From Melioribacter roseus (GTDB lineage Bacteria; Bacteroidota; Ignavibacteria; Ignavibacteriales; Melioribacteraceae), in NCBI GenBank assembly GCA_020724265.1, contig DYHH01000003.1, positions 1 through 64,000 of the forward strand: 64,000 bases of DNA, in the 5' to 3' direction. The notes under the pieces were generated by a model. It saw only the letters and a program-made list of their open reading frames with translations. It did no database searches and was not told the DNA's origin. The translations under genes were made by a program, and so were the position numbers. Numbering within the stretch: the stretch's first letter is position 1; each line of letters opens with the position of its first letter. Positions 12,771 through 29,620 of this stretch are shown one piece after another.

Positions 12771-12929
12771 AATAACCTCAAGATTACTAAGAAGAATTTT
12801 GGCAAAGATAATGACTTATGTGTAAAAATGGTAATAACGAATAAAATATATTAACTAACCTAGCTTCTTACATTCAATTAATGTATGCAGCTTTAAATCC
12901 ATTTTTTTAGTTGTACTATAAAGCGAGAG

Positions 12930-12955
12930 GAGAGAAGGGGGGGGAGGCGGTGAGC
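12930..12955. repeat. Eroded half of the GC-rich palindromic repeat
   Basis: A G-run block, GAGAAGGGGGGGGAGGCGG followed by TGAGC, resembles the right arm of the 6677-6731 repeat without its partner arm. It is probably a decayed copy. Confidence 0.4.
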
Positions 12956-12995
12956 ATGTTTTTCAATCCTTGTTTTGATAAACTTCCGTAATGAT

Positions 12996-13121
12996 TTAAT
13001 GCTCCTTATCCCTCGGCGGATTCGGATCATTACCCGGTGCAATTGTGTCTTTACTTCTTATTTTGCCATCTTTGCCTTTAGTGGTTAGTTCTCCGCTTCC
13101 TTGGTTCTTTAGCATTTCTCT
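12996..13121 (-). pseudogene. Truncated DUF2188 gene (3' end only)
   Basis: On the minus strand this encodes about 41 residues ending in the same 20-odd residues as the intact DUF2188 gene at 14748-14993, down to the final KEH and stop. The first 64 bases (12995-13058) are identical to 14747-14810, and identity then falls off. An in-frame stop lies just upstream, so the 5' half of the gene is gone. It is the left member of a direct repeat bracketing the HicAB-SecB module. Confidence 0.8.
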
Positions 13122-13201
13122 TACGGAAACTTATAAAAATGATGCAGTTATTCTTTTGGAACTTATTACAACATTTGATTGAACTTATTGAGAAATTGCT
13201 C

Positions 13202-13627
13202 CTATTTTGTCTTAAAAAATGGTATGGTTAAAGGCGGTACATTCATTCGTGCTGTAGCCTGATTCACAAATTCTCTAAGATAAGGCCATGTATTCAAGTG
13301 AAGACTTACAGATTTGTAAACTTCAAAAAAATCATCTGTAAAGTCATATTCACTAGTTATTCGCACAATGAAAGTTATTTCTAGTTTAACATAACGAGAC
13401 TTGGATTTAGGTTTTCGCGCATCTACTTTATAAGTCTGAAATATATCAACAACCCCGGTACCACGTATTTTATAGCTTGCTTCCTCATCAATTTTGATTT
13501 CAAGATACTGCGGCACATTAATTTCCGGGTTTAAAAATGCGCTGCTTCTCTGTAGAGAGATTGATTTTAAGTCAATCCCCTCTAATATTTTCCTAAATTC
13601 TTCAGGAGAAATTTTTGGTTTGTCCAT
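13202..13627 (-). CDS. SecB-like chaperone of a toxin-antitoxin-chaperone operon
   Basis: This is a 141-residue protein, slightly shorter than the usual SecB of about 155. The end of the sequence, WPYLREFVNQATARM followed by NVPPLTIPFF, matches the SecB pattern of a YxREhhxxhhxxxxhPPLxLxPhxF tail. The middle is beta-rich. It begins two bases after the hicB stop codon and is the last gene of a hicA-hicB-secB operon. In known TAC modules the SecB-like chaperone folds and protects a chaperone-addicted antitoxin. The SecB assignment rests on this tail, the size and the context, so it is likely but not proven. Confidence 0.6.
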   Translation of the reverse strand: MDKPKISPEEFRKILEGIDLKSISLQRSSAFLNPEINVPQYLEIKIDEEASYKIRGTGVVDIFQTYKVDARKPKSKSRYVKLEITFIVRITSEYDFTDDFFEVYKSVSLHLNTWPYLREFVNQATARMNVPPLTIPFFKTK

Positions 13628-13629
13628 TT

Positions 13630-14148
13630 TTACACTGCTTTATTGAATTGATAAATTTGTACTTGACTAAATTCAGTTGGTTCATTTGACCGTTTTATTT
13701 CGTAATGCACCTCTCTATAATCATCTATAATTGATTGAAATTTATCACAAACTGTATCTAATTTCTTGTCAAGGGTATCAGCTATAAAGGTAGTAGAAAT
13801 TAAAAATTGAACATATTGATTTAGGCTTACTTCATTCTCTTTTGCTTTGAGTGCTAACAGTCTGTGCAATTCTTTCGGCACTCTCATCAAGAACTTTCCA
13901 CTGTATGAGTTTTCTTCATTAACCGGTTCGGGTATCTGTGTCCCGCGCTTCAAGTATTCTTCAAACCACTCTTCTTTAACTGAATCGAGTTTAGATAAAG
14001 CTTCTTCGATTGTATCGCCATCAGTTTGAAAAGCATATTTTCCCAGAAGAGGAATTGAAACATGATAACCACCGCCTTCAGCCTCAGTTAATTTTTTAAT
14101 TTCTAACGGGTAATTTAGATTCATAAAATAATTCAAGTCTTTTTTCAT
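13630..14148 (-). CDS. hicB: HicB-like antitoxin with long C-terminal extension
   Basis: This is a 172-residue protein. Residues 20-60 form the partial RNase-H-like HicB fold (GGYHVSIPLLGKYAF, then GDTIEEALSKL). Residues 84-117 look like a ribbon-helix-helix DNA-binding domain (GKFLMRVPKELHRLLALKAK). Typical HicB proteins end near there, but this one has about 55 further residues ending SQVQIYQFNKAV. Its ATG overlaps the hicA stop codon and it is followed two bases later by the SecB-like gene. It should neutralise HicA and repress the operon. The extension is a good candidate for a chaperone-addiction segment. Confidence 0.8.
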   Translation of the reverse strand: MKKDLNYFMNLNYPLEIKKLTEAEGGGYHVSIPLLGKYAFQTDGDTIEEALSKLDSVKEEWFEEYLKRGTQIPEPVNEENSYSGKFLMRVPKELHRLLALKAKENEVSLNQYVQFLISTTFIADTLDKKLDTVCDKFQSIIDDYREVHYEIKRSNEPTEFSQVQIYQFNKAV

Positions 14149-14438
14149 TGTGCTACTTCTCCTAATTCATCAATAATTTTTACTAGCTGTTTAATGTAAA
14201 CCGGCTTAATTTTTTGACCACCTTTTACCGGAATAATAAAATCACCATCAACACCGCACAGTGGGTGACCTTTGAGTCTATCGGCAGTGATTTTGTAATT
14301 GTGTGAACCCCTGGTTTCACCATAAGTCCACTCAGCGGGGAAATATTTGTCAAGAATTGATTCAATTTCATTTTTAGGAACTTCCTGTCTAAATGCAGGA
14401 TTTTTCCACTTTATGAGTCTTTTTTCTATTCGGCTCAT
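14145..14438 (-). CDS. hicA: HicA-like toxin, mRNA interferase
   Basis: This 97-residue protein is close to HicA size. It has the basic dsRBD-like fold and the signature GSHNYKI near residue 45, where the HicA family places its catalytic histidine. A DGDFIIPVKGGQKIKP strand pair and a C-terminal helix follow. HicA toxins cleave mRNA in a translation-independent way. It is the first gene of the three-gene operon and overlaps hicB by four bases. A palindrome that could bind HicB lies just upstream. I see no clear ribosome site, which is consistent with low expression. Confidence 0.8.
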   Translation of the reverse strand: MSRIEKRLIKWKNPAFRQEVPKNEIESILDKYFPAEWTYGETRGSHNYKITADRLKGHPLCGVDGDFIIPVKGGQKIKPVYIKQLVKIIDELGEVAQ

Positions 14439-14461
14439 GAATAAAATTTGAGATTATAAAT

Positions 14462-14477
14462 ATACTATATATAGTAT
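14462..14477. promoter_or_regulatory. Perfect 16-bp palindrome, candidate HicB operator
   Basis: ATACTATATATAGTAT is a perfect palindrome 24 bases before the hicA start codon. Ribbon-helix-helix antitoxins bind such sites over their own promoter. The TATA-rich centre could also be the promoter itself. Confidence 0.55.
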
Positions 14478-14747
14478 CACTTTACAAGAATTTTCTAAAT
14501 CATTATCGGTTGTAATGTGATTTTGTTTAGCTAATAAGGTAATATAACATTTCAATTCACTTAAAAACAATTTCTGAGTCAAGTGATTGCCAATCAAGTT
14601 AGATTGAATTTTTCCCTTAACTGCCTATCCAAGCTTATCAATCTCGCTTTCTATCAACTTGAATTTATCTTTAATTTCTTAACCTAAATGAAATTGCTAG
14701 TAAATCTGTATTGGTCCCTCTAGGGTCTAAAATAATTAATTAACTGT
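14478..14747 (-). other. Gene-free stretch with a possible decayed reading frame
   Basis: There is no intact gene. On the minus strand, roughly 14680 down to 14478 reads nearly open with a single in-frame TAG; a helical segment, EIKDKFKLIESEIDKLG, lies just before the stop. It may be the remnant of a lost island gene. No family is recognisable. Confidence 0.25.
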
Positions 14748-14993
14748 TTAATGCTCCTTATCCCTCGGCGGATTCGGATCATTACCCGGTGCAATTGTGT
14801 CTTTACTTCTAATTTTACCGTCTTTGCCTTTTGTTATTAACTCACCACCACCTTGGTTTTTCAACATTTCTCTTGCTGCATGTTCGGCTTCTTTTTGAGT
14901 TGGATGTTTAGAGGATGCTTTGCTTGCGGAAAGTCTTTTGTTTATCCAGGCTTCATCTTGCTTGTAAACTATTCGGTCAGCTCTCTTAGTCAT
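14748..14993 (-). CDS. DUF2188 family small protein
   Basis: This 81-residue protein is taken from the ATG at 14993, with GGAG eight bases upstream; an in-frame TTG lies just before it. The segment KHPTQKEAEHAAREML-(K)NQGG matches the DUF2188 pattern of a short helical domain that ends in a strand with TKGKDGKI. The tail (APGNDPNPPRDKEH) is polar and Pro-rich. Function is unknown. Its 3' half is duplicated as a fragment at 12996-13121 on the far side of the TAC operon. Confidence 0.7.
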   Translation of the reverse strand: MTKRADRIVYKQDEAWINKRLSASKASSKHPTQKEAEHAAREMLKNQGGGELITKGKDGKIRSKDTIAPGNDPNPPRDKEH

Positions 14994-15087
14994 CAAATTT
15001 CTCCAAATTATTATGCTATTTATTCTGTATTAGGAATATTTTTACTCTGTGTTTAATGCACAACTTTTATGCTATTAAGTGAAAAAA

Positions 15088-17214
15088 TTATTCGCCATTC
15101 TCCCATTTCTTGCAAATTTCTTCAAAGTCTGGCGCTTCAAAATCTGGATCTGACCAAATTTTAGAGAATTTGGGATCATTGCTGTCTGGTATAGGCTCTA
15201 CAACTCGTATTGTAACTTGGATAGGAGCGGTAACACAATCTCCCATTACAATCGCTGATTGCTGTGGTAATGCTGGAAGTTGATTAAGTAAATCATGACT
15301 AACTGAAGAAATTACTGATTTGAAATATTGCTGATCTTCTGGGTTTTGAATTCGATGGACAATAAAAGAATTACATTGTGCCATAATTGTTTTAGATAGT
15401 TCGCTAGGTCGTTGTGACGCGATTAATAAACTCAGGCCAAATTTTCTTCCCTCCTTTGCAATTTTTTCAAATACATGTCTCGCTCTCGTTTGTCTTTCAG
15501 AAATTGCGTTTTCAGGTATATAGTGATGAGCTTCTTCTAAAATTAGTACAACAGGGAATGAACCTCTTGGATTAATACTTTGAGTAAATTCAAATATAAG
15601 CCTACCAATAATCGATGTAATATTTTCTAAAACCTCACTTGCAATAGCACTGAAGTCAATAATAGTAACATTATGTTTATTTTTAGATATATTATTTTTT
15701 TCGATCTGTTCTTCGTATTGATTTTGCCAAGGTATGGAATTATCTTTGAAATTTTTTGAGGGATCCTCTCCAAAAATGAGCCGAAGAAATGAAGCAAGAG
15801 AATTAGAAAAATCATCATTCTTAAACAAAAAATCGTATCTAGCATCTTTTAGCATTCTCTCTATCCTCATTAATAAAGTCCCCATGTTCGATCTTACTCT
15901 TGTATCATGAATGGACTGTTCTTTTATTTCTTCCTCAATCATATTTATTAAGTCAATCATTTTAAATGGAGTAGGTGAATCGACTGACAGATTCCTTTTC
16001 TTTTCTATTACAGGCCTTATTTTTTTTTGATCTTCCTCTAGATAACTTTCTATTTTTAATAGTTCAGAGCGCACAATCGGTTCTTTAGAAGAAGTTAATC
16101 TTTGAGGGTACCCATTCTCCTTTGGCGGTGTATTATCAAAAATTATTTTGAAGGCATCAAAATATCTCTGGGGATCAAAATCTTTATTTATTTCTTGGAC
16201 AGCAATAATCAGTTCCACTGCATCAAATTCTGCTTCCGTCAATCCTTCTGCATCTTCGTGAATTGATGTTCCTATTGCTCCTCTTCCTTCCTCAAGCAAT
16301 ATTTTGATTCTTGTAACACAATTCTTTATTAAATCCAAGAAATTAAATCGCTTAATATCCTCAGAATAATTTTCTTTCACTTTGGTTATAGCATTATGTA
16401 ATATGGGTCTTTGGACCTGTTCTGAAGGTGTAAACAATGCATCAAAGTCCTGTGTATTCATAAACCAATGAGGTAACTTAAACCAGTCGCTTCTTACTAC
16501 TATTTGATTGAAATAATCTCTTTTGTCTCCTTCAACATTAGATGCTTGAAACGCACTCTCATATTCATTATTCGTATCAAAAATTATAAAGTGTGCATTT
16601 TTCATTTCCGGTTTATCTTCCAGAATAGAACGTATGATTGCTGTTACAGTACAAGACTTACCAGAACCTGTATTTCCTAATATTGCTGCATGCTTACCAA
16701 AAAACTTATCCATATCAATTACGACTGGATAATCGGGGAAAACGGTAGAAGTACCAATGTTTATAAACTTTTTATTTTTATCATCACTTTCTTTACTAAT
16801 CTTGAAAATTATGTTCAGCTCATCTTCGGTAATTGACCAAACTTCATTATCCAAAGATGGATATCCTATAATTCCATATTCAAATTTCGATTCTTTCCCT
16901 TGGGACTCATTATTAGTCTTACTAACGATTGAGCCTATCATGGTCACGGTCATAGTTCTCTTTGATTTCGGTAGCACTACTGTTGAGGTTGTTTTATAAT
17001 TCAGTTCCGAGTCTTCGAACATATTTACTTTAGTAACTATACCAACAATTTTATCTGCACCTATTGGTATTATCACATAAGAATTTATGATACCAATTTT
17101 GTGGGTTTCCGCGAAGCTGTTTTTAACAAAAGATTGTGCATCTTTATCAAGCTCTATGATAGCAGAATAAGAATTAACTGAAACAACTTTACCTATCCTT
17201 CGATGTGATTGCAT
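15088..17214 (-). CDS. HerA-like ATPase of a SIR2-HerA defence system
   Basis: This 708-residue protein has an N-terminal HAS-barrel-like beta domain, a Walker A motif GNTGSGKSCTV near residue 183, and a Walker B motif VVLILEEAHHYIPEN near residue 558. These are followed by RARHVFEKIAKEGRKFG and LLIASQRPSEL (sensor region), the hallmarks of HerA/FtsK-type hexameric DNA translocases (DUF87). Its start overlaps the end of the SIR2-like gene by 26 bases, so the two are translationally coupled. HerA paired with SIR2-like effectors is a known antiphage system in which the complex controls NAD+ depletion and DNA processing. The strongly AT-rich composition suggests horizontal acquisition. Confidence 0.9.
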   Translation of the reverse strand: MQSHRRIGKVVSVNSYSAIIELDKDAQSFVKNSFAETHKIGIINSYVIIPIGADKIVGIVTKVNMFEDSELNYKTTSTVVLPKSKRTMTVTMIGSIVSKTNNESQGKESKFEYGIIGYPSLDNEVWSITEDELNIIFKISKESDDKNKKFINIGTSTVFPDYPVVIDMDKFFGKHAAILGNTGSGKSCTVTAIIRSILEDKPEMKNAHFIIFDTNNEYESAFQASNVEGDKRDYFNQIVVRSDWFKLPHWFMNTQDFDALFTPSEQVQRPILHNAITKVKENYSEDIKRFNFLDLIKNCVTRIKILLEEGRGAIGTSIHEDAEGLTEAEFDAVELIIAVQEINKDFDPQRYFDAFKIIFDNTPPKENGYPQRLTSSKEPIVRSELLKIESYLEEDQKKIRPVIEKKRNLSVDSPTPFKMIDLINMIEEEIKEQSIHDTRVRSNMGTLLMRIERMLKDARYDFLFKNDDFSNSLASFLRLIFGEDPSKNFKDNSIPWQNQYEEQIEKNNISKNKHNVTIIDFSAIASEVLENITSIIGRLIFEFTQSINPRGSFPVVLILEEAHHYIPENAISERQTRARHVFEKIAKEGRKFGLSLLIASQRPSELSKTIMAQCNSFIVHRIQNPEDQQYFKSVISSVSHDLLNQLPALPQQSAIVMGDCVTAPIQVTIRVVEPIPDSNDPKFSKIWSDPDFEAPDFEEICKKWENGE

Positions 17215-18532
17215 ACCAAACCTCTTTTAATTTACTTATTGGCCTCTTTTCGCCTTTCTCATTATCATCATATAATCTTTTTAACTCTTCTCTTATCTTC
17301 TCTTCTGTCTTCATATCTTCCATATCTGGTAAAATATTTTTTACAAAACCTTGGAAAGTACCATATCCTTCCAATCTACCATCTTGGTTTTCTTTGCCAC
17401 CCGAAATCACAATTATTCTTTTACTATCTACTTTATTAATTATTTTTTCAATTCTTGAATTTGAATTCCCATCTTCTAATTTAGATTTTCCTTCAGGTAA
17501 TACGATGACTAAATTAAATGTTGGTATTGAAAGTGCTTGGTAAATGAGACGATTAATATGTTCATCGCCAAAGCTATAACCTAAGGTAAACAGAACAGAT
17601 TGAGGGCGAAAGATTGAAAATGAAAAATAACGAAACAATTCAGAATATGGATAGCCTAATGTTTCACCTTCCTTTAATGCAGTTGGATATATTAATAAAT
17701 CTCCAATCTCATTTTCTCTTATTTCTTTTTGGACAATTCCAAAAATGTTATCTGAACTTTCTTTTCGTGCCCAGTTAATTGACCCGTGAAGTTTATATAA
17801 ATGTAGGACCTTATCAATTCGACTAACAACCCCTTCAGTAGTGTCGCCAGGATAATACAAATCATACTGATAAGACTCCGGTCTAAACCCTTTTTCAATA
17901 CTACCAATAAAACCATCCAGATAAGTAATTCCCATCTCATCCATATATTTTTCAAAAACTAAGTCATAATTTGTAGTAAATAGTTTCACTCTTGGTAGAG
18001 TGACAGGTCTTAATAGTATTTTTCTTAAAAACTCTTTATGAAATGTATTCTCATTAAATTCTTCCGATCGAGTTATAAGTTTACACTCATTGAATAAAAT
18101 ATACTTTATCAAGTTTATTGCACTACCAATTATCTCATAATCAAATTCCTTGGCCGCAATAATAACTTTGTCAGTATTAATCAATTTACTTTGTCTATTC
18201 TGATAAATGTTTGAGAGGAATGAAAGCAACGACTCAAGATTATCATCCCATTTGTTTTCATTATACTCGGCAATTGCTTTAAGTAGTTCTTTTCCTTTTT
18301 CCAAAGATTCTTCAACTTGTAATAACTTTCTATCATCATTCCACCATTTCTGAAAACTGAATATGCGCGGAGCTCCTAGATCAATCGAAGTACCATTACC
18401 GACTAAGAAGTTTACATTTTTTAGCATTAGCAAATTTTTAATACGTAGCTGAAGTTTTTCTAAATTCTTTGACTTAGAATCTGATAAATCGTAAGGCGTG
18501 TTACCAATATAATATTCATTTGGCGTATTCAT
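17189..18532 (-). CDS. SIR2-like NAD+-consuming effector of a SIR2-HerA defence system
   Basis: This 447-residue protein has the degenerate sirtuin motifs seen in antiphage SIR2 proteins. They are an NAD-binding VGNGTSIDLG near residue 45, FTTNYD near 186, KLHGSINW with the catalytic His near 249, and LGYSFGDEHINRLI near 318. Such enzymes hydrolyse NAD+ upon infection and stop growth. It is the first gene of the pair, overlapping the HerA-like gene downstream. An AGAG ribosome site precedes the ATG. C-terminal residues 350-447 are charged and may contact HerA. Confidence 0.9.
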   Translation of the reverse strand: MNTPNEYYIGNTPYDLSDSKSKNLEKLQLRIKNLLMLKNVNFLVGNGTSIDLGAPRIFSFQKWWNDDRKLLQVEESLEKGKELLKAIAEYNENKWDDNLESLLSFLSNIYQNRQSKLINTDKVIIAAKEFDYEIIGSAINLIKYILFNECKLITRSEEFNENTFHKEFLRKILLRPVTLPRVKLFTTNYDLVFEKYMDEMGITYLDGFIGSIEKGFRPESYQYDLYYPGDTTEGVVSRIDKVLHLYKLHGSINWARKESSDNIFGIVQKEIRENEIGDLLIYPTALKEGETLGYPYSELFRYFSFSIFRPQSVLFTLGYSFGDEHINRLIYQALSIPTFNLVIVLPEGKSKLEDGNSNSRIEKIINKVDSKRIIVISGGKENQDGRLEGYGTFQGFVKNILPDMEDMKTEEKIREELKRLYDDNEKGEKRPISKLKEVWYAITSKDR

Positions 18533-18557
18533 TTTTTACTCTCTTTTTATTTTTTAT

Positions 18558-18887
18558 CTACACAACAAAAGCCCTAACCCCCGAAGAAATTATCATATCA
18601 AAAAGCCCTGTTGTAAATTTATCAAGATTAGCTTTAGCTAAACCTTTTTGTTTTAGAATAATTAATTCGGCTAAATCTTTTTTACTTTTAACAAGCCATT
18701 CAAAATCTTCGGTACTCATCTCACCGGTTGCTAGCTGCGCAGTCCATAGTTTTAAATCATCTTCGGATTTATTTATAAATTCATATCCGGCAGCAATAGC
18801 TTGATCTTTGAAATCATTAAAACTTGTTTCTGCTAATGTTGTAATTCCGCTTTTTATGTCTTGTAGAAAATCGTTGAAATCTGCCAT
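18558..18887 (-). CDS. Hypothetical helical protein
   Basis: This 109-residue protein has a good ribosome site (GGAG nine bases before the ATG). It is mostly alpha-helical and acidic in its first two thirds, with a moderately hydrophobic C-terminus (LFDMIISSGVRAFVV). I do not recognise the family. It lies 25 bp upstream of the SIR2-like gene and about 30 bp downstream of a small lipoprotein gene on the same strand, so it could be co-transcribed with the defence genes. A role in the SIR2-HerA system is possible but nothing in the sequence shows it. Confidence 0.6.
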   Translation of the reverse strand: MADFNDFLQDIKSGITTLAETSFNDFKDQAIAAGYEFINKSEDDLKLWTAQLATGEMSTEDFEWLVKSKKDLAELIILKQKGLAKANLDKFTTGLFDMIISSGVRAFVV

Positions 18888-18919
18888 ATCTTTATCTCCA
18901 AACTAATATTTTGCCACTA

Positions 18920-19336
18920 TTATTTTCTTTTACCGCTTTCAAGTTCTATAACTTGATCAAAGTGCTCTGAAATTAATTTCATTGAATTATCTATAAACGC
19001 ACGGTTTAGAGTATTTTCCTCTTCCCATCTCTTCAAAAAACCTATAATGGAGTTTCTTTCCGGGTCTTTTATAATCTCCCATTGTGCAACTGTTTCTTCA
19101 TTGTTAGGTAATCCTTTGGCATACTCGTAAGCTTTCTCAATGTCTAATTTTAATTTTTCAATTTCTTCGATAAAATTTGAGTAAGGCTGGTCGGCTTTAT
19201 TCATCAAAGCTATGGATTCAACCTTTATTGAGATATTTTGTTCGTAGGCACGCTGGTTAAAAATTGCGGTGGATGTGCAGGCAGTTAATATTACAAAAAG
19301 AATTACCGGATAAGTTTTATAGAGTTCTCTTTTCAT
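18920..19336 (-). CDS. Hypothetical small lipoprotein
   Basis: This is a 138-residue protein with a lipoprotein signal: basic start, hydrophobic stretch and lipobox ILTAC, placing the lipidated Cys at about residue 20. The mature part is helical and charged (IEEIEKLKLDIEKAYEYA), suggesting a coiled coil. AGAGGT precedes the ATG. It sits 21 bp after the PD-(D/E)XK-like gene and 32 bp before the 109-residue gene, so all may share a transcript. Family and function are not recognised. Confidence 0.6.
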   Translation of the reverse strand: MKRELYKTYPVILFVILTACTSTAIFNQRAYEQNISIKVESIALMNKADQPYSNFIEEIEKLKLDIEKAYEYAKGLPNNEETVAQWEIIKDPERNSIIGFLKRWEEENTLNRAFIDNSMKLISEHFDQVIELESGKRK

Positions 19337-19357
19337 AAAAGACCTCTTGTTTTATAT

Positions 19358-20107
19358 TCAGTTTATTTTTGATCTAACTGTAATTAAATTTAACTCGTAG
19401 ACTTTTTTATCGAAACTGTTTAAAAAAAAGACTCTGTCAAAGTATGATGAATAATGATGATTAAGTGTTTCTTCAGATGGATTAAAGAAAGTACCAGAAC
19501 TCATTGAGACCGTGTGTATTAATAACCAGAGCTGATTACAATTCAAATAGTGATTAACTTTATTGGACTTTCTATTTATTGTTTCTTGTAAAAGATCAAT
19601 CATATTGTATTGCATCCAACCAACTTTAGCATCTAATACAGATGGTGATTGGAGATTGGGTAATTTATAAACTGAAATTCTACTAACTTCTTCCGGAAAA
19701 TTTTCTAAATCTTCAAAATCATTGACAATTTCCGTAGGTACATTTGAGGCAATTATTTTTGCTTCTATCAATCTATAAACTTTATTGGCAATAGTATCTC
19801 GTTCCTTCTTCGTTAAATTTCTATCAATTGTTAAAATGAGATGTATTTCATAATTATTGTAATTATTTCTTTTAAGTAGGTATTTAATTCTTTCAATTAT
19901 ATCATTAGCAATTGAATCTTGCGTAGGAAACGTTAGAGAACTGTGATTATCTTGATAAATTTTTGTTAGCTCGATTCCGATTGTTATGTCTTGGTTATTA
20001 ATTATAAAATCGGGTCGTTCACAAGGTTCTATTATCCCTTGTGGAAAATCACTATAAATTTTTTTGAATAAGTCTAAATAATATTTTTCTTCAATTTTGT
20101 CTTTCAT
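19358..20107 (-). CDS. PD-(D/E)XK-like protein next to a restriction-modification enzyme
   Basis: This is a 249-residue protein. The N-terminal segment has Glu27, then RPDF (Asp33), then IGIELTK (Glu46), the spacing of a PD-(D/E)XK nuclease core in which the usual lysine is shifted (ELTK instead of ExK). A helical region with a KEFDT-like polar stretch and a beta-rich C-terminus follow. It begins six bases after the stop of the restriction-modification gene, so it is clearly in that operon. It may be an accessory nuclease or an inactive relative. The nuclease reading is tentative and rests on this motif only. Confidence 0.45.
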   Translation of the reverse strand: MKDKIEEKYYLDLFKKIYSDFPQGIIEPCERPDFIINNQDITIGIELTKIYQDNHSSLTFPTQDSIANDIIERIKYLLKRNNYNNYEIHLILTIDRNLTKKERDTIANKVYRLIEAKIIASNVPTEIVNDFEDLENFPEEVSRISVYKLPNLQSPSVLDAKVGWMQYNMIDLLQETINRKSNKVNHYLNCNQLWLLIHTVSMSSGTFFNPSEETLNHHYSSYFDRVFFLNSFDKKVYELNLITVRSKIN

Positions 20108-20113
20108 ATAAAA

Positions 20114-23100
20114 TTACTTCTCAAACTCCACAACCTTTATCTCCTCTTCCGTCAACCCGTAAAGCTTATATACCATTTGGTCTATTTCGGATTCTAATTT
20201 GGTTGTGTCTGCCAGAAGATCTTTGTTTTTTAAATTAATTATTCTTCTTACTAGCTCAACCAAAGTTTTCTTGATAGCTGATTGGAATTTGGGAACTGGT
20301 AAAGCAAGCAAGTGGATTATTTTAGTTTCTATAAATGTGTTCCCAAGTCGTGGAGCTATAATTTTCCTTATATAATATTGAGAAAATCTTGAATTAATAA
20401 TGCATAATATTACTGATAGGTTTTCTAATGTGTTTTGCTTATTATCTACAAATTGTAGTGAAAAGAAATTGTTTGATGCGTATGAATCAATATCAATAAA
20501 CGCTTTAAAAGGATTCCCCGTTCTTGTTATATAAATTTTAGGATATTTAAAAATATTTTCATCTCGCAGTGATGCATAATCTCCATTTTCTTTATTAATA
20601 ACTTCTTTACGATAATCAACATACCAGCCTATTCTTTTGCCATAATAATTCATGATATTGTCACCATGTTTTGCGCCTACATATAAAGGTTTTTCATCAC
20701 CTCGTTCCTTTTTGGTTTTAAAAAGTTTTTCTCTGATATTCCCAGTATGAATTCCTTCATGGCATTGCATCAAATCGCCTATTAGTTCAAGATTATCAAC
20801 CTTTGATTTAATAATATAATCCAGTTCACTTACTAACAGATTATATTTATTTCCAAATTCTGGAAATATCATTTTGTTTTTTTCTTTATTATAACTCTCT
20901 TCATGTAATCCTGAATCAAAATAATATTTATAACACTCACAATACTCGTGATAATTGTTGTCATAAATTATCATACAAACATCATGTTCAACATCCTTAA
21001 ATGGTTGGAGTAGAAAAGGCATTCCAGTATTTTGATACCATCGTAAATTCGTGAGTCTATCTTTTATTAAAGTACGCGTTTTTTCAAAATCCTTAATCAT
21101 GAAACTATCAGGCAATAAAATTGCATTCAAATAATTTGGAATTTTTAACGTAAGTCCAAGAAAATATGCAAATGCATTTGGTGTCGAACTATCAATTTGC
21201 GGATAATAATCTTTCAAAAATTCTTTTTCTCTCTTTGTAAATATATCTCCCCACGGCGGATTCCCAATCACAACATCAAACCCAACAAAGTTACCATCTT
21301 CGTCAAGCACTTCGGGGAATTCAAACCGCCATTCAAATGCATTTGCGTAAAGAGCTTTGTATTCTTCCGTTTTGTTTTTCCTTTGCTCTATTGCTTTATT
21401 CAATTTATCCGATATTACATTTCTTTTCTTTTCGGTTTTTTCTTTTTCTTCATCGGTCATATCTCTATCAAAGAGTCCGACTGTATTTAGTCTGTGAAGC
21501 TCTTCGGTAAGCTTATCAACAATTTCATTTTCTTTTTTAAGCGGATCAACCGCAAAACCGCGTATCCTTTCCTTCGTGCTTTCAATAGATTTTTTAAGCT
21601 CTTTCCGTTTATCACGGTCGTGTTCATTTTTATATAAGCCGACGTTGATTTTATAAACATCAAAAATCTTTCTGCTACCGGAAGGGAAGATGTCATGGTG
21701 AATATCAAATTTGCTTACAAGTGAATTTCCCTCTTTAATGTTGATATCGATATTCGGCAGGGTTTCAAGTTCGGTGTACCCGCTTTCTTTTGTATAGTAA
21801 GCATTTTTAAGCAGCTCAATCCACAAGCGGAGCTGTGCAATTTTAACCGAGTTGGGATTTATATCAACACCGAATAAACAGTTTTCAATGATGGTCTGCT
21901 TTTGCGTGAATAGTATTTCCTGAACTCTTTGAGATTCGTTAGGCTTATCTTTGCTGTTTTTAGACGGGTGGTATTCAAAAATATCTTCGCCGTAATTATA
22001 TGTGATAATCAGCTCGTCGTTTTCTATTCTTACTTCGTAACCGCTTAGTATAACACCTTTTTCATCGGCAAGTATTCCAAGCTCCGCCTTAATGGTTATT
22101 ATTTCATTTAAAGCCGATACAAGAAAGTGTCCCGAACCGACTGCAGGATCACAGATTTTAATAGAGTTTACGACTTCATTTGCTTCAATAATATCTTTAG
22201 TATTTTTCTTTCCGGCTAAATGATTTTTAAGATCATCGAACGTTCCGCAGTTCCAATTATATTTTTCGTTGAACTTTTGTATAACTGCTCTTCGTATTGT
22301 TTCCCGGCACATATACATTGTAATAAACCCGGGGGTGAAATAAGAACCGTCTTTGTAACCGTTTATCTTTTCGAATATTAATCCGAGTACCGAAGCATTA
22401 ATAAGCGATTTCTTTTCCTCTTCAATTTTCTCTTTGCCTTCCGATGTAAAGTTGTATGCATCGAGAAATTCAAACAAGTATTGCAGGGTGTTTAGTTTTT
22501 CATTTTTCTTTTTATCCAGCTTTGACGATTTATAAATCTTAATTGAGTGACTGTCATCAAGCTGATTGATTCGTATAGCCTGGTTTTCGAGTTCGGTAAT
22601 TTCAAATAATGAACTATTGAGATAAGGAACTTTGGCATACTTTGTTTTTATTTTATCTACTCGATCATTTATTCTAATCGCCAATACAGAATGAAAAAGT
22701 TTATAGAGTTCGTCGAAATCTGTTATTGTTTTGATGTTAAGAAATTTGTAATCATCATTTTTGTGATAGTTGTATAATTGTGATTCGAGAAGTTTTAAAA
22801 AGAGTATCCTGTTAATCCATGTAAGAGAAAGCTCCAAGGCAATATGGTAAAGCTGTTCTTCTTTATTACTGCCGAATTTTTCGGGTTCTTTAATCCTGTC
22901 TAGTGCACCGTCAACTTTAAGTATTTGAATTGCATTTTCAATAAACGAGCCGGAGTCCCGGTCACCGGTATCTTTCCGGTTGATAACCTTTTTGTTTTTA
23001 TCCTTTTCTTCTTCAAGCCCGATAATGTGCAGAAGTTCGTGATAAAAATTTCTATCGAGTGAGTTGCTGTCGTTGGCAAACGGCTGCTTTAATAAGTGAA

Positions 23101-23797
23101 CGGGGGATAAGATTTTGTATAAAGGTATAAATTTTTCTTCAGTTGCATCATCGGTTTTATGAATTAGCTTTTTATAATTCTCTAAGTTGAAATATGTAAA
23201 GTGAATTTCAATCGTAAGCTCGTCAAGAAAAGGATTGACAATTTCGTTATAAAAATGCTCCGTGCTGCCGGAAACTTTCTGATCGTCTTTCCATTTTGTG
23301 TAGTCTTCAATTAATTTTTTGTTTTTATAAAAAAGATTTTCAAACAGAACGGCATCGAAAATAAACCATTCGTAAATGTTGGTTGCAATTAGATATTTTA
23401 TTTCATCGTTTTTTCTTTCAATTCTTTCCTGTAAATAATAAAGTACAAGTTCGTGGAAGGCTTTCCTATTAATATTGTCAAGTGTAATCATTTCGGATTT
23501 ATTGGTGGGTCTTTTTACTTCCAGCATTACACCCGCATTGCTGCTTTGTTTATTTTCAAGGTAGATTACGAGGTCGGTAGAATTTTTAGAATTAATTAGG
23601 TGCTTCCCTTTATAATAAGTATCATCTAAAAAATTCTTTAAGTGTATTTTATGATTATCTTCTCTTTCTTCGTGATCGATATTATCAAACAAAGTTGAAA
23701 GATTTTTACGAAACATGTCAAATTCTTCTCTAAATACTGTTGCCTTGCGGTAGGCTTTGTTTAAGGATTGTTTGGGTGTAAGGGTTTTGATGTTCAT
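20114..23797 (-). CDS. Type IIG (Eco57I-like) fused restriction-modification enzyme
   Basis: This 1227-residue protein combines nuclease, methyltransferase and target recognition. An N-terminal PD-(D/E)XK site is visible (Asp75 in STDLVIY, then LEVK with Glu93 and Lys95). The methyltransferase has SAM motif I DPAVGSGHFL near residue 552 and catalytic motif IV GNPPWG near 846, the N6-adenine type. The C-terminal 350 residues should be the target recognition domain. It is intact. The C-terminal third is visibly AT-richer than the rest, hinting at a swapped recognition domain. It shares an operon with the PD-(D/E)XK-like gene downstream. BREX PglX is an alternative for the fold, but no other BREX genes are present. 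Confidence 0.88.
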   Translation of the reverse strand: MNIKTLTPKQSLNKAYRKATVFREEFDMFRKNLSTLFDNIDHEEREDNHKIHLKNFLDDTYYKGKHLINSKNSTDLVIYLENKQSSNAGVMLEVKRPTNKSEMITLDNINRKAFHELVLYYLQERIERKNDEIKYLIATNIYEWFIFDAVLFENLFYKNKKLIEDYTKWKDDQKVSGSTEHFYNEIVNPFLDELTIEIHFTYFNLENYKKLIHKTDDATEEKFIPLYKILSPVHLLKQPFANDSNSLDRNFYHELLHIIGLEEEKDKNKKVINRKDTGDRDSGSFIENAIQILKVDGALDRIKEPEKFGSNKEEQLYHIALELSLTWINRILFLKLLESQLYNYHKNDDYKFLNIKTITDFDELYKLFHSVLAIRINDRVDKIKTKYAKVPYLNSSLFEITELENQAIRINQLDDSHSIKIYKSSKLDKKKNEKLNTLQYLFEFLDAYNFTSEGKEKIEEEKKSLINASVLGLIFEKINGYKDGSYFTPGFITMYMCRETIRRAVIQKFNEKYNWNCGTFDDLKNHLAGKKNTKDIIEANEVVNSIKICDPAVGSGHFLVSALNEIITIKAELGILADEKGVILSGYEVRIENDELIITYNYGEDIFEYHPSKNSKDKPNESQRVQEILFTQKQTIIENCLFGVDINPNSVKIAQLRLWIELLKNAYYTKESGYTELETLPNIDINIKEGNSLVSKFDIHHDIFPSGSRKIFDVYKINVGLYKNEHDRDKRKELKKSIESTKERIRGFAVDPLKKENEIVDKLTEELHRLNTVGLFDRDMTDEEKEKTEKKRNVISDKLNKAIEQRKNKTEEYKALYANAFEWRFEFPEVLDEDGNFVGFDVVIGNPPWGDIFTKREKEFLKDYYPQIDSSTPNAFAYFLGLTLKIPNYLNAILLPDSFMIKDFEKTRTLIKDRLTNLRWYQNTGMPFLLQPFKDVEHDVCMIIYDNNYHEYCECYKYYFDSGLHEESYNKEKNKMIFPEFGNKYNLLVSELDYIIKSKVDNLELIGDLMQCHEGIHTGNIREKLFKTKKERGDEKPLYVGAKHGDNIMNYYGKRIGWYVDYRKEVINKENGDYASLRDENIFKYPKIYITRTGNPFKAFIDIDSYASNNFFSLQFVDNKQNTLENLSVILCIINSRFSQYYIRKIIAPRLGNTFIETKIIHLLALPVPKFQSAIKKTLVELVRRIINLKNKDLLADTTKLESEIDQMVYKLYGLTEEEIKVVEFEK

Positions 23798-24139
23798 ATT
23801 AACAATTTGATTGAATTTTAGATAAGGAATAGAAAAAAATATTGGCGAGCGGTAGTTTGTTATTGCTTATGAATTGATCGGGCATTCACATATCCGTTTG
23901 ATTTAATACCAATTCAATTATTTATACAAAATAATCTTTTTCTACAGTAGAAACAAATTATTGAAAATTGAAGTAAAAACCCGTGTCTATTTACTTCATC
24001 TCATCAGCAGAAATTTCGATTGCTACTCACCATTTCCCGCTTCTAGTTCAGAATACTAAAAGATATTGCGTTCATAAAAATTATTGAATAAAAAATCTGT
24101 TAAAGTGTATCATAAATAACAAAACTTTTGGAGGTTGTA
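23798..24139. other. Gene-free divergent region at the island edge
   Basis: This AT-rich DNA lies between the divergent restriction-modification and hydrolase genes. I see no coding frame or strong hairpin. A GGAGG ribosome site for the hydrolase lies at 24130-24134. Confidence 0.5.
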
Positions 24140-25588
24140 ATGAAAACATTATTTGCTAGATTAAACGAATTTGGGATTACGGTTTTTTTGTTGTGTCTAT
24201 TTAATCCAATATTAGGGCAAGATCTTAAATACATTGGAAACTGGGAAGGTAAGTTATTAACCCAGTCAGGCGATGTTAGGGTTGTATTCAATATAACTGA
24301 AGAGATAGGAAAGTATAGTATAACATTTGACATACCTGACCGGAGCGTAACAAAAATCCCTGTATCAATTATTAAATTGGAAGACGACTTTTTCCAGTTT
24401 GAAGTTCCATTAATTAAAGCTTATTATGAAGGAGTATTTGACAATGAGGAAAATTATCTAAATGGGACCTGGCATCAAAACGAAAGATCTTTACCCCTTA
24501 TTCTAAGTAAAATAAAGGTAAGTGAAAAACTGAATCGTCCTCAAACACCCCAGCCACCCTTTCCATATAAAGAAGTTGAAGTAAGTTATGAAAATAAGAA
24601 GGATGGCATTATTCTTAGTGGTACGCTAACTATTCCTGAAAACAATGAACCATTTCCGGCTGTAATTTTAATAACAGGGTCTGGGCCACAAGATAGAGAT
24701 GAAACTATTTTCGGACACAAACCCTTTTGGGTAATTGCAGATTATTTAACCCGCAGAGGTATTGCTGTTTTGCGAGTTGATGACAGAGGAATTGGTGGTT
24801 CTACCGGTGATTTTTCTGAGGCTACTACTTTAGATTTTTCTGAGGATGTTCTATCCGGGGTGAATTTTCTCCTTTCCAGAAATGATATTGACAAAACAAA
24901 AATAGGTCTAATTGGTCACAGTGAAGGCGGTCTGATTGCCCCAATGGTGGCTGCCGAATCTGATAATATTGCATTTATTATAATGCTCGCAGGTCCTGCT
25001 TTACCCGGTGATGAGATCCTTTTATTACAAGCAGAATTAATAGCCAAAACTCACAGTATCCCAGAAAACATTATCATAAAGAGTATTGGGTTAAATAGAA
25101 TGCTATACGATGTTGTTAAGATTTCAACCGATGTTTCTGATATGAAGGTAAGATTAAGAGAAACTATAACTGTTTTCATTAGTCATCTGAATGAAGAAGA
25201 AAAGAAAATTCAAATGTTTTCTGAAGAATATCTTTTATCACAAATTAAAATATTGACATCGCCGTGGTTAAGTTTTTTTCTGAAACATGATCCAAAACCT
25301 TTTCTTGAAAATATTAGTTGTCCTGTTCTTGCAATTTACGGTGAAAAAGATATTCAAGTTCCCCCGAAAGAAAATATTATTGCTCTCGAAGAGATTATTT
25401 CTAATAGCCGGGCACAAAACCAATACATCGAAATTTTAGAAATTGATGGCGTGAATCACTTATTTCAGAGAGCTGAAACTGGTTCGCCGGATGAATATGG
25501 ATTGATTGAAGAAACTTTTTCACAAGATGTTCTCCGGATAATGGGCGATTGGATAACTGAAACGATAATTACATCTAAAGATTATTAA
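24140..25588 (+). CDS. Alpha/beta hydrolase, secreted
   Basis: This is a 482-residue protein. The ATG at 24140 is chosen over the upstream TTG because GGAGG lies just before it and a signal peptide ending ILGQ follows. Residues 25-130 form a beta-rich N-terminal domain of the kind often found before Bacteroidota hydrolases. The hydrolase domain has the oxyanion region ITGSGPQDRDE, RVDDRGIGGS, and the nucleophile elbow GHSEGG near residue 262. A late YGEKDIQVPP acid loop and the His in DGVNHLFQ complete the triad. The likely activity is ester or peptide hydrolysis outside the cytoplasm; the substrate is unknown. Confidence 0.85.
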   Translation: MKTLFARLNEFGITVFLLCLFNPILGQDLKYIGNWEGKLLTQSGDVRVVFNITEEIGKYSITFDIPDRSVTKIPVSIIKLEDDFFQFEVPLIKAYYEGVFDNEENYLNGTWHQNERSLPLILSKIKVSEKLNRPQTPQPPFPYKEVEVSYENKKDGIILSGTLTIPENNEPFPAVILITGSGPQDRDETIFGHKPFWVIADYLTRRGIAVLRVDDRGIGGSTGDFSEATTLDFSEDVLSGVNFLLSRNDIDKTKIGLIGHSEGGLIAPMVAAESDNIAFIIMLAGPALPGDEILLLQAELIAKTHSIPENIIIKSIGLNRMLYDVVKISTDVSDMKVRLRETITVFISHLNEEEKKIQMFSEEYLLSQIKILTSPWLSFFLKHDPKPFLENISCPVLAIYGEKDIQVPPKENIIALEEIISNSRAQNQYIEILEIDGVNHLFQRAETGSPDEYGLIEETFSQDVLRIMGDWITETIITSKDY

Positions 25589-25816
25589 TATTATACTACA
25601 ATCCATTGAATCGAATCTGTAAAATAATTCGAGAATGGGTCTCTGCATTTGCTTAACTGTCTTCCAATTTGGTTCAGTGACATTATCATCTAATTGAATT
25701 TAATCAAATATATTTCACAACCGTAATTAGCTTTGTAGATATTTTAAATGCAAGAATAATCCTCTATTGCCTGCTAAAATTTTTAATTCTGACTTCTGTA
25801 TTCTGCCTCCTGCTTC

Positions 25817-26575
25817 TCACTTCTCCCACAAAATCGTAAGGCACGAATTATAACTCGGCATCGGAATATTTTGCTCCATTACAAATTGGTCTTTTTTATA
25901 ATTAAAGTCCTCCAGGAACCAGGCTTCAATCGGGATTTCTTCTGCTGTTCGTGGAATCTCATTCCCTTTATAAAAGTCCGATGTATAGGAGTTATTGTTT
26001 ACTTTCATTCCGTTCCTAATAAAGTGATAAGGAAAATATTTATTAATCATACTGTATTTTACAATGCCATTGGTAGTTAAAATTATTGCAGTCGGTGTGT
26101 TGCCTAATTCAGCATATCTCATAGCGGCAGAACTTAATGATGTATTAAAATATTCGGCAATATCGCTCAAGAGGCGAGATGAGAGTTTCTTTGCTTTGAT
26201 AAAATTTTGGAACCAAGGTTCGTACATAATTAATTCGGCAGCGAAAACATTTGCGTCAAATTCCTTTCCACTGTTTTGAACTAGTGATTTACCTTCGCAG
26301 TTAACGGATTGATTTTTGTTTCTTTCGTTAAAAAAATGTCCCATCTCATGAGCAAGTACAAAGTTTTCCTGTCCCTTATCTTTAATTGTTGTTGAGATAG
26401 TAATAGCCCCGAAATCATTTTTATAACTTATTCTGCCGAAGCAATGTTCGAGTTTTTCAATCCGTACATCCAAAAATTCTGCATTGGCAATTTTAACAAG
26501 ATTAAGTTGGTCGGGTTTTTCTATACAGTACTTATCCAAAAGTTTTCTTGCGTTTGCTTTGGCAAGTACGCTCAC
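25817..26575 (-). CDS. ImmA/IrrE family metallo-endopeptidase
   Basis: This 252-residue protein has the zinc motif HEMGH near residue 77 and a downstream Glu/Asp-rich helix (GKEFDANVFAAELIM) typical of the ImmA/IrrE (M78, DUF955) family. The C-terminal half resembles the extra domain of longer IrrE-like proteins. Such peptidases cleave repressors, as in ICE excision or the radiation response, and often control mobile elements or defence. No adjacent HTH repressor is present. The nearest same-strand neighbours are a small coiled-coil protein and a sigma-like protein, which could be its targets. Confidence 0.82.
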   Translation of the reverse strand: MSVLAKANARKLLDKYCIEKPDQLNLVKIANAEFLDVRIEKLEHCFGRISYKNDFGAITISTTIKDKGQENFVLAHEMGHFFNERNKNQSVNCEGKSLVQNSGKEFDANVFAAELIMYEPWFQNFIKAKKLSSRLLSDIAEYFNTSLSSAAMRYAELGNTPTAIILTTNGIVKYSMINKYFPYHFIRNGMKVNNNSYTSDFYKGNEIPRTAEEIPIEAWFLEDFNYKKDQFVMEQNIPMPSYNSCLTILWEK

Positions 26576-26823
26576 CGGTTACTCCAATTATTTAATAAAC
26601 TGTTGGTAATTTCATCCTTTCGGAAGTAAGCTAATCCTAAACTTTGAACCGCTGAGCGATAAAATAATTAACAAAAGGTGATATATTCTCAACCCTCCGG
26701 GATAGTTTAATCTTCCTCTCCAAACCGCGCAACAGCATTCTGTCAAAGATATTTTTTTTGGAAATAGAACTTGATTAACACAATTAAATAGAATAAGAAT
26801 TTCATTTTTATTAACTTTTTTAT
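26576..26823. other. Gene-free intergenic region
   Basis: No supported gene. A short minus-strand frame here (26612-26830) runs into the palindromic repeat and has no coding character. Confidence 0.4.
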
Positions 26824-26884
26824 AACTCATCCCCCTTTTATTCCCCCTTCTCTTGCCAAGAGAAGGGGGTTAGGGGGTTGAGTT
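26824..26884. repeat. GC-rich palindromic intergenic repeat, copy 2
   Basis: AACTCATCCCCC at the left pairs with GGGGGTTGAGTT at the right, with an inner CCCCCTTCTCTT/AAGAGAAGGGGG stem around a short loop. It is the cleanest copy of the family and can fold into a stem of over 20 base pairs. Confidence 0.8.
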
Positions 26885-26956
26885 TAAATAACCTAATTCA
26901 GAAAATTCAGAATAATTTCTATTTCTTTTGGACAGCAATACGCAACAGTGAAATTA

Positions 26957-27346
26957 TTATTTTAACTCCCCCTTTTTAATTTTCTCGATAATCTCAAGAC
27001 GGGTTTGCTCTTTAATCTTATCTTGAAATAATTCATTTTCATCTCCTTCGAATTTATTATAAGCAAATTCAACATCTTCAATAGCTTGTTCGGATAATCC
27101 GAGATCAGTTAGATTAATTGTTTTATTACTGATTTTTTCAAAAACAGATTTTAATTTTTCTGCAAATTTTTCTCCCTCAATTAATTTTTGTTTTGCTTCC
27201 ACCTTTTTTAATAGCTTTGCTTTTTTTTCATTGATACGGTCTATATCAATGTTACGAGTTTTAAAGTATTCTTCAAGTTCCTCCTTATCTTCTATTGGTT
27301 GGTAAGAAAAATAAAAATTAAGCAAAGCTAATCTTTGCTTATTCAT
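26957..27346 (-). CDS. Hypothetical helical protein
   Basis: This 129-residue protein has an excellent ribosome site (AAGGAGG). It is highly charged and almost entirely helical: a long Lys/Glu coiled coil at residues 20-70, then an acidic helix pair, ending in a basic helix. I do not recognise the family. It is encoded between the sigma-like gene and the ImmA/IrrE peptidase on the same strand. A role as an anti-sigma or peptidase substrate is conceivable, but only the neighbourhood suggests it. Confidence 0.6.
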   Translation of the reverse strand: MNKQRLALLNFYFSYQPIEDKEELEEYFKTRNIDIDRINEKKAKLLKKVEAKQKLIEGEKFAEKLKSVFEKISNKTINLTDLGLSEQAIEDVEFAYNKFEGDENELFQDKIKEQTRLEIIEKIKKGELK

Positions 27347-27476
27347 AAAACCTCCTTAAAGTTGTTTCCCCTTGTTTGTGATAGATTCTAGTAGTATATG
27401 TATTGTAAAAAATAATTTTTCAAAGCAATACAAAAAGTAAATAAGAAATTTATTTCAAAGTATTATTGGTTGTTTG

Positions 27477-27564
27477 AACTCAACCCGCCAGCCCTCTCCT
27501 CTTAACAAGAGTAGGTCGTCAGACTCCGACGAACTCTATCGAGGGGATAGGGGGATAGGTTGTT
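27477..27564. repeat. GC-rich palindromic intergenic repeat, copy 3, with extra inner hairpin
   Basis: It starts AACTCAACCCGCCAGCCC and ends GGGGGATAGGTTGTT. In the middle TCGTC-AGACTCC-GACGA forms its own hairpin, making this copy longer than the others. It occupies most of the 297-bp gap between the sigma-like gene and the helical protein gene. Confidence 0.65.
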
Positions 27565-27643
27565 ACGTTTATGTGAAAAAGAATTCATTTCTATATCAAA
27601 CTCGAATAAGTAATTTTTTGTATAAAAAACTATCAAGTTGAGG

Positions 27644-28216
27644 TTAGTTATTCCTTCTCATTTTCTTAAATTCATCCGGTAGATATTTGTCAAGTTTATA
27701 ATGTGCTCTTCTTAGTGCGTTATTTACATCAGTTTCAGTCATATTCATTTCTTGTGCAATTTCTTTTACCTGTTTACCTTCGCCCTTAAGCATGAGGCAA
27801 ATTGAAGCTTCTTCATCATTCTTTAGAATTACATCATAAACGGTATTTTCAAAGCTCCTTAGGTCATGATTCTTTTCAATCAATTTTATTTCTGCTTCAG
27901 TTAACTCACCGTTCTTTGCTTTATAGAGATCCAATTCATCATGTTCTTTGTAACCGTCAAAATGATTTTTAAGTCTTTTCCTATGGTTTGCAACTACACT
28001 TTTTATCTGCATTACCATAAAAGAATTAAAATCAATATCGTTTTTGAATGTTACATCACCCTTTTCAATTTTTTCATAAATTACATCAATTGTCTCACCT
28101 TCTTCAAATTGGTGTTTAATACCAAATCCTGCAAGATAACTTTGCTCAAATTTAATCCAATTATAGTAATCGCCGTTTGCCAAACCAGCTTTGAATTTAT
28201 TAAAAAAATCTTCCAT
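27644..28216 (-). CDS. Sigma-70-like (ECF-type) regulator
   Basis: This is a 190-residue protein. Its C-terminal third, VKEIAQEMNMTETDVNNAL with a preceding LKGEGKQ and a following RRAHYKLDKYL, reads as sigma region 4 (helix-turn-helix for the -35 element). The middle, with a helix around NSFMVMQIKSVVANHRKR, could be region 2. It is shorter than group 1 sigma factors and fits the ECF class, though region 2 is weak. No membrane anti-sigma factor is adjacent. It precedes the helical protein and ImmA/IrrE peptidase genes on the same strand, separated by a palindromic repeat. Confidence 0.65.
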   Translation of the reverse strand: MEDFFNKFKAGLANGDYYNWIKFEQSYLAGFGIKHQFEEGETIDVIYEKIEKGDVTFKNDIDFNSFMVMQIKSVVANHRKRLKNHFDGYKEHDELDLYKAKNGELTEAEIKLIEKNHDLRSFENTVYDVILKNDEEASICLMLKGEGKQVKEIAQEMNMTETDVNNALRRAHYKLDKYLPDEFKKMRRNN

Positions 28217-28431
28217 TGGAATTCCCGTTTTTTCTTCTCTTATATAAATATTCTCAAAAACTCAATATCTACGAATAAATATTTTAAAAATTTAATTCGT
28301 TGTCACTTCGCAGATCGGAGTATTTATTATAGAGACCGATAAAAATGGGGAAAATAATCAAGAAAATGAACAAATTATACAAGTTGGAAATAAAATGGAG
28401 ATATTGGATTACCGGGCTGCTTATACAGGTT

Positions 28432-28541
28432 TATCGCTTATTTCTCGATATGTTTTCGCTGAGTTCCCGAATGGTTTCCGCTAAGTTCTCGAAGTATTGC
28501 CGTTACATTCCCAATGTAATGCCGTTGTATACATACTCGGC
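28432..28541. repeat. Degenerate 22-bp tandem repeat array, about five units
   Basis: The core (T/C)CG(C/T)T recurs at 28434, 28456, 28478, 28500 and 28522, an exact 22-base period. In the first four units a second C(G/C/A)A element follows at a fixed offset of 12 bases. Units 2 and 3 are the most alike; unit 5 is the most diverged. The period is not a multiple of three, so it is not coding. It lies in the gene-free stretch 28217-28843. Confidence 0.6.
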
Positions 28542-28650
28542 GTGCAATCCTCGATCTCCTCCATCTTGCCTCTATTGTCTTTCGGCATTCAGTTAGCAGT
28601 GGAATATCCCGATTGAATCAGCGTGAGGTATTCGGATTTCTTCAAATTTT

Positions 28651-28714
28651 TCCTCTCTTAACAAGTCCTGCCCGCCGTTTCGCTTTAGGCAAGGCGGGGT
28701 GGATTAAGGTGAGT
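28651..28714. repeat. Eroded copy of the GC-rich palindromic repeat
   Basis: CCTCTCTTAACAAG at the left and GGTGAGTT at the right match the ends of the family. The middle is replaced by a different hairpin, CCCGCC with GGCGGG around a 17-base loop. Confidence 0.5.
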
Positions 28715-28843
28715 TAATTAAAAAACGAAATCCGAACCCACTCAATACACTCGTGGATGATAATTCATAAGCGTTGAAGATGAGGGCAAACCTTAGACGA
28801 AAAAGAAACAATCAATAAAACAATAGAAAAGGAAAAAATAAAA

Positions 28844-29527: not shown

Positions 29528-29620
29528 TTATCCTTCGGGGTACGGTAAAGTATCCCGTTGGTTTTCTCAAATGGGTTTTTATTATAATTAATTCTGAAAG
29601 CAAGTATTCTTTAAAACAAA

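What the first reader, a model, noticed from the sequence alone, without database searches (positions are those of the whole stretch)
13202..14438. HicA-HicB-SecB-like toxin-antitoxin-chaperone operon
Three overlapping or abutting genes encode a HicA toxin, a HicB antitoxin with about 55 extra C-terminal residues, and a SecB-like protein. TAC modules with a SecB-like chaperone are established for HigBA in Mycobacterium, and chaperone addiction through an antitoxin C-terminal extension is known. The long HicB tail next to the chaperone gene is what such an addiction segment would look like.
Basis: partly seen in the sequence, partly recalled or inferred. Interest (0 to 1): 0.72.

Follow-up and report, generated by a model that had tools for sequence, protein, structure and literature searches.

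The report
HicAB toxin-antitoxin with SecB-like chaperone
A bacterial self-poisoning switch (an RNA-cutting toxin and its antidote) carries a third gene for a chaperone that the antidote probably needs to survive; it is a real and complete example of an already known kind of switch, here sitting in a cluster of anti-virus genes.

Summary
Three near-contiguous minus-strand genes encode a HicA-like toxin (97 aa), a HicB antitoxin (172 aa) with a 55-residue tail, and a 141-aa SecB-like protein. Pfam misses the last one. Its predicted structure best matches M. tuberculosis SecB-TA solved with its antitoxin's chaperone-addiction peptide (Foldseek E 6.5e-9, VIA Z 14.1). It also matches the PADLOC profile of the CmdTAC phage-defence chaperone (E 1e-5). 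Six other genomes (Ignavibacteria, Bacteroidales, Fibrobacter MAGs) carry the same trio in the same order, each with a long HicB tail. A candidate operator, found once in this genome, sits before hicA and is shared by the nearer relatives.

SecB-linked HicAB modules were reported before, and one (Methylomonas methanica) was shown experimentally to be chaperone-dependent in 2016. One refinement: a HicB about half identical to this one keeps most of the tail without any SecB found nearby. So the addiction segment is probably only the last ~20 residues.

The module lies in a 16.8-kb island absent from a sister genome, next to SIR2-HerA and a type IIG restriction enzyme. That fits CmdTAC-like phage sensing, which is untested. 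Verdict: new member of a known kind.

The parts
14145..14438 (-). hicA, putative mRNA-cleaving toxin, 97 aa; G44-S45-H46 in the place of the HicA catalytic box
13630..14148 (-). hicB antitoxin, 172 aa: HicB-type N-terminal domain, ribbon-helix-helix at residues 77-114, 55-aa C-terminal tail
   Evidence: PF05534 1.1e-14; structure model resembles HicB of solved HicAB complexes, weakly
13633..13797 (-). HicB C-terminal tail (residues 118-172): helix predicted to about residue 154, then a low-confidence end
13633..13692 (-). candidate chaperone-addiction segment plus ClpX-type C-terminal degron (residues 153-172, ending ...EFSQVQIYQFNKAV)
   Evidence: inference and PMC8165232
13202..13627 (-). 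SecB-like TAC chaperone, 141 aa
14462..14479 (-). candidate HicB operator TGATACT-N6-AGTAT, inside it a perfect 16-bp palindrome, overlapping the likely hicA promoter; only exact copy in the genome
12818..29608 (.). 16.8-kb island holding the module, absent from same-genus genome G120 whose flanks are colinear
12995..13122 (-). remnant of a DUF2188 gene 3' end, 88% identical to 14747-14874; with it brackets the module as a 128-nt direct repeat
14748..14996 (-). DUF2188 gene (PADLOC PDC-S16), neighbour, not part of the module
15088..17214 (-). HerA of a SIR2-HerA type defence pair, neighbour
17189..18532 (-). SIR2 of a SIR2-HerA type defence pair, neighbour

Best explanation
This is a complete toxin-antitoxin-chaperone (TAC) module of the HicAB type. 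HicB, through its ribbon-helix-helix, is inferred to repress the operon at the palindrome in front of hicA, and its N-terminal domain to bind and block HicA, an mRNA-cleaving toxin. The end of HicB's tail is inferred to be aggregation- and protease-prone and to be bound by the SecB-like tetramer, which keeps HicB folded and hides the C-terminal Ala-Val from ClpXP. When another client occupies the chaperone (unfolded export precursors, or a phage structural protein as in CmdTAC), HicB would be degraded and HicA would stop translation. Shown here: gene anatomy, SecB fold, HicB identity, tail, conserved trio, conserved operator-like site, location in an island of defence genes. Inferred: toxicity, binding, degradation, trigger.
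For: The SecB fold is closest to Rv1957 SecB-TA solved with its ChAD peptide. A profile of three relatives finds the same PDB chain at 2e-6, and the aligned stretch puts V130-P131-P132-L133 opposite Mtb L154-P155-P156-L157, which PMC6377645 names among the walls of the ChAD Tyr114 pocket. PADLOC's PD-T4-9_C (CmdC) profile matches this protein at 1e-5, and all three members scanned. Seven trios share the order A-B-C. HicB tails are 46-70 aa in 7 of 7 trios, against >=40 aa in 2 of 9 SecB-less HicB genera (Fisher p 0.003; small, hand-chosen sets). All seven tails have a Tyr within the last 18 residues. The tail evolves faster than the body (22% vs 59% identity to the nearest relative), as published ChADs do (PMC5105189). 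HicB ends in Ala-Val; the HigA1 ClpX degron is its last two hydrophobic residues, Val-Ala (PMC8165232). HicAB-SecB TAC function was shown in M. methanica (PMC5105189).
Against: No toxicity, binding or protease data exist for this locus. HicA matches Pfam only through relatives. HicB of L062, ~50% identical, has most of the tail but no SecB, so a tail alone does not prove addiction. Only 3 of 7 tails (this one, L073, L075) end in two aliphatic residues; L074, L076, L077 and L078 do not. The Tyr observation was made after looking.
Confidence: 0.87

Rival explanations
1. A TAC module whose natural job is phage defence in the manner of CmdTAC or MqsRAC: a phage late protein titrates the chaperone, HicB is degraded, HicA aborts the infection. 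(A more specific version of the best explanation.)
For: Chaperone matches the CmdC profile. The module lies in a 16.8-kb island absent from a sister genome, beside SIR2-HerA, a type IIG restriction enzyme, a Csx23-like and a CapP-like gene. CmdTAC and MqsRAC protect E. coli from T-even phages (PMC11618068, PMC9519451).
Against: Location alone does not show function, and toxin-antitoxin genes gather in islands anyway. The trios L073 and L074 lie among housekeeping-looking genes. No phage for this host is known.
Confidence: 0.4
2. An ordinary two-gene HicAB whose HicB tail serves HicB's own assembly, with a SecB-like export chaperone merely co-transcribed. The genome has no other SecB detected, so the protein could be its export chaperone.
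For: L062 HicB has the helix part of the tail with no SecB nearby. No PF02556 match in the genome.
Against: The same three genes stay together in seven divergent genomes. The gene sits in an island missing from a congener, unlike a housekeeping chaperone. The fold is nearer to a TAC chaperone than to export SecB.
Confidence: 0.1
3. A decayed module in which one part no longer works.
For: HicA has no direct Pfam match.
Against: All three frames are open; the Gly-Ser-His box is kept; dN/dS for hicB is about 0.19 against L073 (dS could not be estimated for the other two).
Confidence: 0.05

Closest known systems
Mmet-TAC, Methylomonas methanica HicAB with SecB-TA (Metme_2813, Metme_2812 and chaperone; PMC5105189)
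   Same: HicA, HicB with C-terminal extension (residues 119-159 there, 118-172 here) and SecB-like chaperone in one operon
   Different: Sequences could not be compared directly with the tools held; ChAD sequences are said to share no significant similarity between systems
Mtb-TAC, HigB1-HigA1-Rv1957 (SecB-TA)
   Same: Chaperone fold (TM 0.76-0.78, Z 14.1); PPL motif at the ChAD Tyr pocket; hydrophobic C-terminal dipeptide on the antitoxin
   Different: Toxin and antitoxin belong to HigBA, not HicAB; chaperone only 16-18% identical in the structural alignment
CmdTAC (PD-T4-9) and MqsRAC phage-defence TACs
   Same: Third gene is a SecB-like chaperone matching the same PADLOC profile (CmdC); defence-gene surroundings
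   Different: Other toxins (ADP-ribosyltransferase, MqsR) and other antitoxins; phage defence untested here
Classical two-gene HicAB
   Same: HicA and HicB domains; HicB with ribbon-helix-helix
   Different: Most classical relatives found here end shortly after the ribbon-helix-helix and have no third gene

Membership tests
Toxin-antitoxin-chaperone (TAC) systems | Toxin, antitoxin and SecB-like chaperone genes in one operon | tested here: met
   gene spacing -4 and +2 nt; same order in seven trios
Toxin-antitoxin-chaperone (TAC) systems | Third protein has a SecB fold | tested here: met
Toxin-antitoxin-chaperone (TAC) systems | Antitoxin carries a C-terminal extension absent from classical homologues | tested here: met
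   7 of 7 trios vs 2 of 9 SecB-less genera; caveat L062
Toxin-antitoxin-chaperone (TAC) systems | Chaperone binds the extension and is needed for toxin neutralisation | not testable with these tools
   needs growth and binding assays; ChAD pocket motif PPL is conserved
HicAB | HicB antitoxin domain | tested here: met
   PF05534 1.1e-14, over cut-off
HicAB | HicA toxin domain (PF07927) with catalytic His | tested here: inconclusive
   no direct Pfam hit; aligned relatives match PF07927; G44-S45-H46 aligns with the HicA box
CmdTAC | CmdC-type chaperone | tested here: met
   PDLC04072 1e-5 here, and in all 3 members scanned; the same profile also hits chaperones of other TAC types
CmdTAC | ADP-ribosyltransferase toxin CmdT | tested here: not met
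   the toxin here is HicA-like
Canonical SecB (PF02556) | Match to PF02556 above cut-off | tested here: not met
   no match for this protein; 4 of 7 relatives match weakly, best 0.0011

The most novel reading that the evidence does not exclude
HicAB paired with a SecB-like chaperone is an anti-phage sensor in Ignavibacteria and Bacteroidales: the chaperone is the bait for a phage protein and the HicB tail end is both chaperone handle and protease tag. No published HicAB-type TAC tested against phage was found in the open-access papers searched.
Probability: 0.35. Interest if true: 0.5.

Novelty: new member of a known kind. Interest (0 to 1): 0.3.

Why it matters
It extends HicAB-type TACs to Ignavibacteria, Bacteroidales and Fibrobacter MAGs with seven aligned examples. 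A relative with the tail but no chaperone narrows down where chaperone addiction resides. Its place among defence genes makes HicAB-TAC a sensible candidate for phage tests, after CmdTAC and MqsRAC.

Tried and rejected
Pfam and NCBIfam on the single proteins: no SecB or HicA hit; the structure route was needed. Single-protein scan of genome contigs and two-sequence scan of viral contigs: no relatives. Plasmid and phage tblastn gave only weak SecB-like hits: C. difficile plasmids at 23% identity, temperate phages at 35-40% over part of the protein. Considered that the whole 55-residue tail is the addiction segment: rejected because L062 shares the helix part without a chaperone. Considered that the palindrome was a chance match: composition shuffles of single upstream regions are not decisive (20 of 200 reach the window's score), but the exact site occurs once in 3.77 Mb and at the same place in relatives. 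Mets et al. 2024 and Sala et al. 2013 are not in the library. G137 and G266 gave no chaperone hit with the family profile; the tool warns that an empty answer without a positive control is weak.

Full report
What is there. The window comes from a 3.77-Mb genome. The nearest named relative of the chaperone is in a Melioribacteraceae MAG that the genome search places in the window's own family, so the source is probably an Ignavibacteria-class bacterium. On the minus strand, hicA (14145-14438), hicB (13630-14148) and a 141-codon gene (13202-13627) follow each other with a 4-nt overlap and a 2-nt gap.

The chaperone. The 141-aa protein matches no Pfam or NCBIfam family. PADLOC's PD-T4-9_C profile, the chaperone of CmdTAC, matches at 1e-5. 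A profile of three relatives finds Rv1957 SecB-TA in the PDB at 2e-6, and one of seven relatives at 8e-6. AlphaFold2 with seven sequences gives pLDDT 88 and four long strands between a short and a long helix. Foldseek ranks Rv1957 with its ChAD peptide first (5mtw, E 6.5e-9, TM 0.76/0.78), then E. coli and H. influenzae SecB. VIA-align gives Z 14.1 over 131 residues for 5mtw and 12.7 for E. coli SecB.

The antitoxin. HicB has the PF05534 ribbon-helix-helix at residues 77-114 and 55 residues after it. The model, of moderate confidence, shows one helix from 109 to 154 and then an end with pLDDT mostly below 50; its first part weakly resembles HicB of solved HicAB complexes.

The toxin. HicA aligns with Pfam-recognised HicA proteins and keeps G44-S45-H46. 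In the distant Bacteroidales trios the His of this box is not conserved (L076, L078: GSS).

Relatives. The chaperone alignment found six loci in 84,980 genomes, each with hicA-hicB-chaperone in this order: L073 (Melioribacteraceae), L074 and L077 (Ignavibacteria), L075 (Fibrobacter), L076 and L078 (Bacteroidales). The scan works from short patterns, so this is a lower bound. In 395 genomes of the phylum, 14 have a PD-T4-9_C match; by eye most stand beside HigBA-like, CmdT-like or HEPN genes, and only the window and G259 (= L077) beside HicAB. A search with HicA in 79 genomes of the window's own family found one more genome with the trio, G401, the same locus as L073.

The tail. In all seven trios HicB has a tail of 46-70 residues. 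Among SecB-less HicBs, most end within 30 residues of the ribbon-helix-helix; L062, L063 and L065 are exceptions. L062 is closest to the window's HicB (~50% identical over residues 1-143) and shares the helix with its KFQ/NFQ motif, but lacks the aromatic, hydrophobic end. I therefore place the likely addiction segment in the last ~20 residues (inference). The end ...FNKAV resembles the HigA1 ClpX degron described in PMC8165232, where chaperone site and degron lie in the same segment.

Regulation. TGATACTATATATAGTAT (14462-14479, minus strand) stands just before the hicA start codon, its palindrome ending 23 nt upstream, and overlaps the best promoter-like match. The pattern TGATACT-N6-AGTAT occurs exactly once in the genome and stands before hicA in L074, L075, L077 and L062, with one change in L073. 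L076 and L078, the most distant, lack it. I read it as the HicB operator (inference).

Surroundings. The same-genus genome G120 has colinear flanks that meet where the window has 12818-29608, so the module lies in a 16.8-kb island. Island neighbours include DUF2188 (PDC-S16), HerA and SIR2, a Csx23-like gene, a type IIG restriction-modification protein and a CapP-like peptidase. A 128-nt repeat of the DUF2188 3' end brackets the module.

Known or new. PMC5105189 reports TACs of HigBA, MqsRA and HicAB type and shows experimentally that M. methanica HicAB depends on its SecB-TA; PMC3968373 cites an earlier survey naming HicAB among them. So this is a new member of a known kind. The specifics that may be new are the Ignavibacteria/Bacteroidales branch, the shared operator, the tail-without-chaperone relative and the defence-island location. 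Phage defence by TACs is shown for CmdTAC and MqsRAC (PMC11618068, PMC9519451); I found no such test for a HicAB type in the papers searched.

Noticed in passing
window 15088-18532: SIR2 and HerA genes of an anti-phage pair directly upstream of the module; both far below NCBIfam equivalog cut-offs but strong PADLOC matches.
   Followed up: partly
window 20114-23797: 1227-aa type IIG restriction enzyme-methyltransferase (PADLOC 8e-216) in the same island.
   Followed up: partly
window 18920-19336 and 25817-26575: A Csx23-like protein (PADLOC 7e-19) with no CRISPR genes seen beside it, and a CapP-like IrrE peptidase (4e-47).
   Followed up: no
window 12995-13122 and 14747-14874: 128-nt direct repeat (88%) of a DUF2188 gene end brackets the HicAB-SecB module, perhaps a trace of how it was gained.
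   Followed up: partly
L065:2284-3498: HicA-like ORF, HicB with a 77-residue tail, and a DUF6941 protein in a row: a possible three-gene HicAB variant with a non-SecB third partner.
   Followed up: partly
L062:2663-3482: HicAB with long HicB tail and the same operator pattern but no SecB; a HigB-like gene and a small ORF lie downstream.
   Followed up: partly
[quoted passage not shown]
   Followed up: partly
KY271395.1 (L080), PV340577.1 (L081), NZ_CP149718.1 (L079): SecB-like stretches in the repressor-recombination region of two temperate phages, and a SecB gene on a C. difficile plasmid with holin and amidase genes, beside unassigned genes.
   Followed up: no
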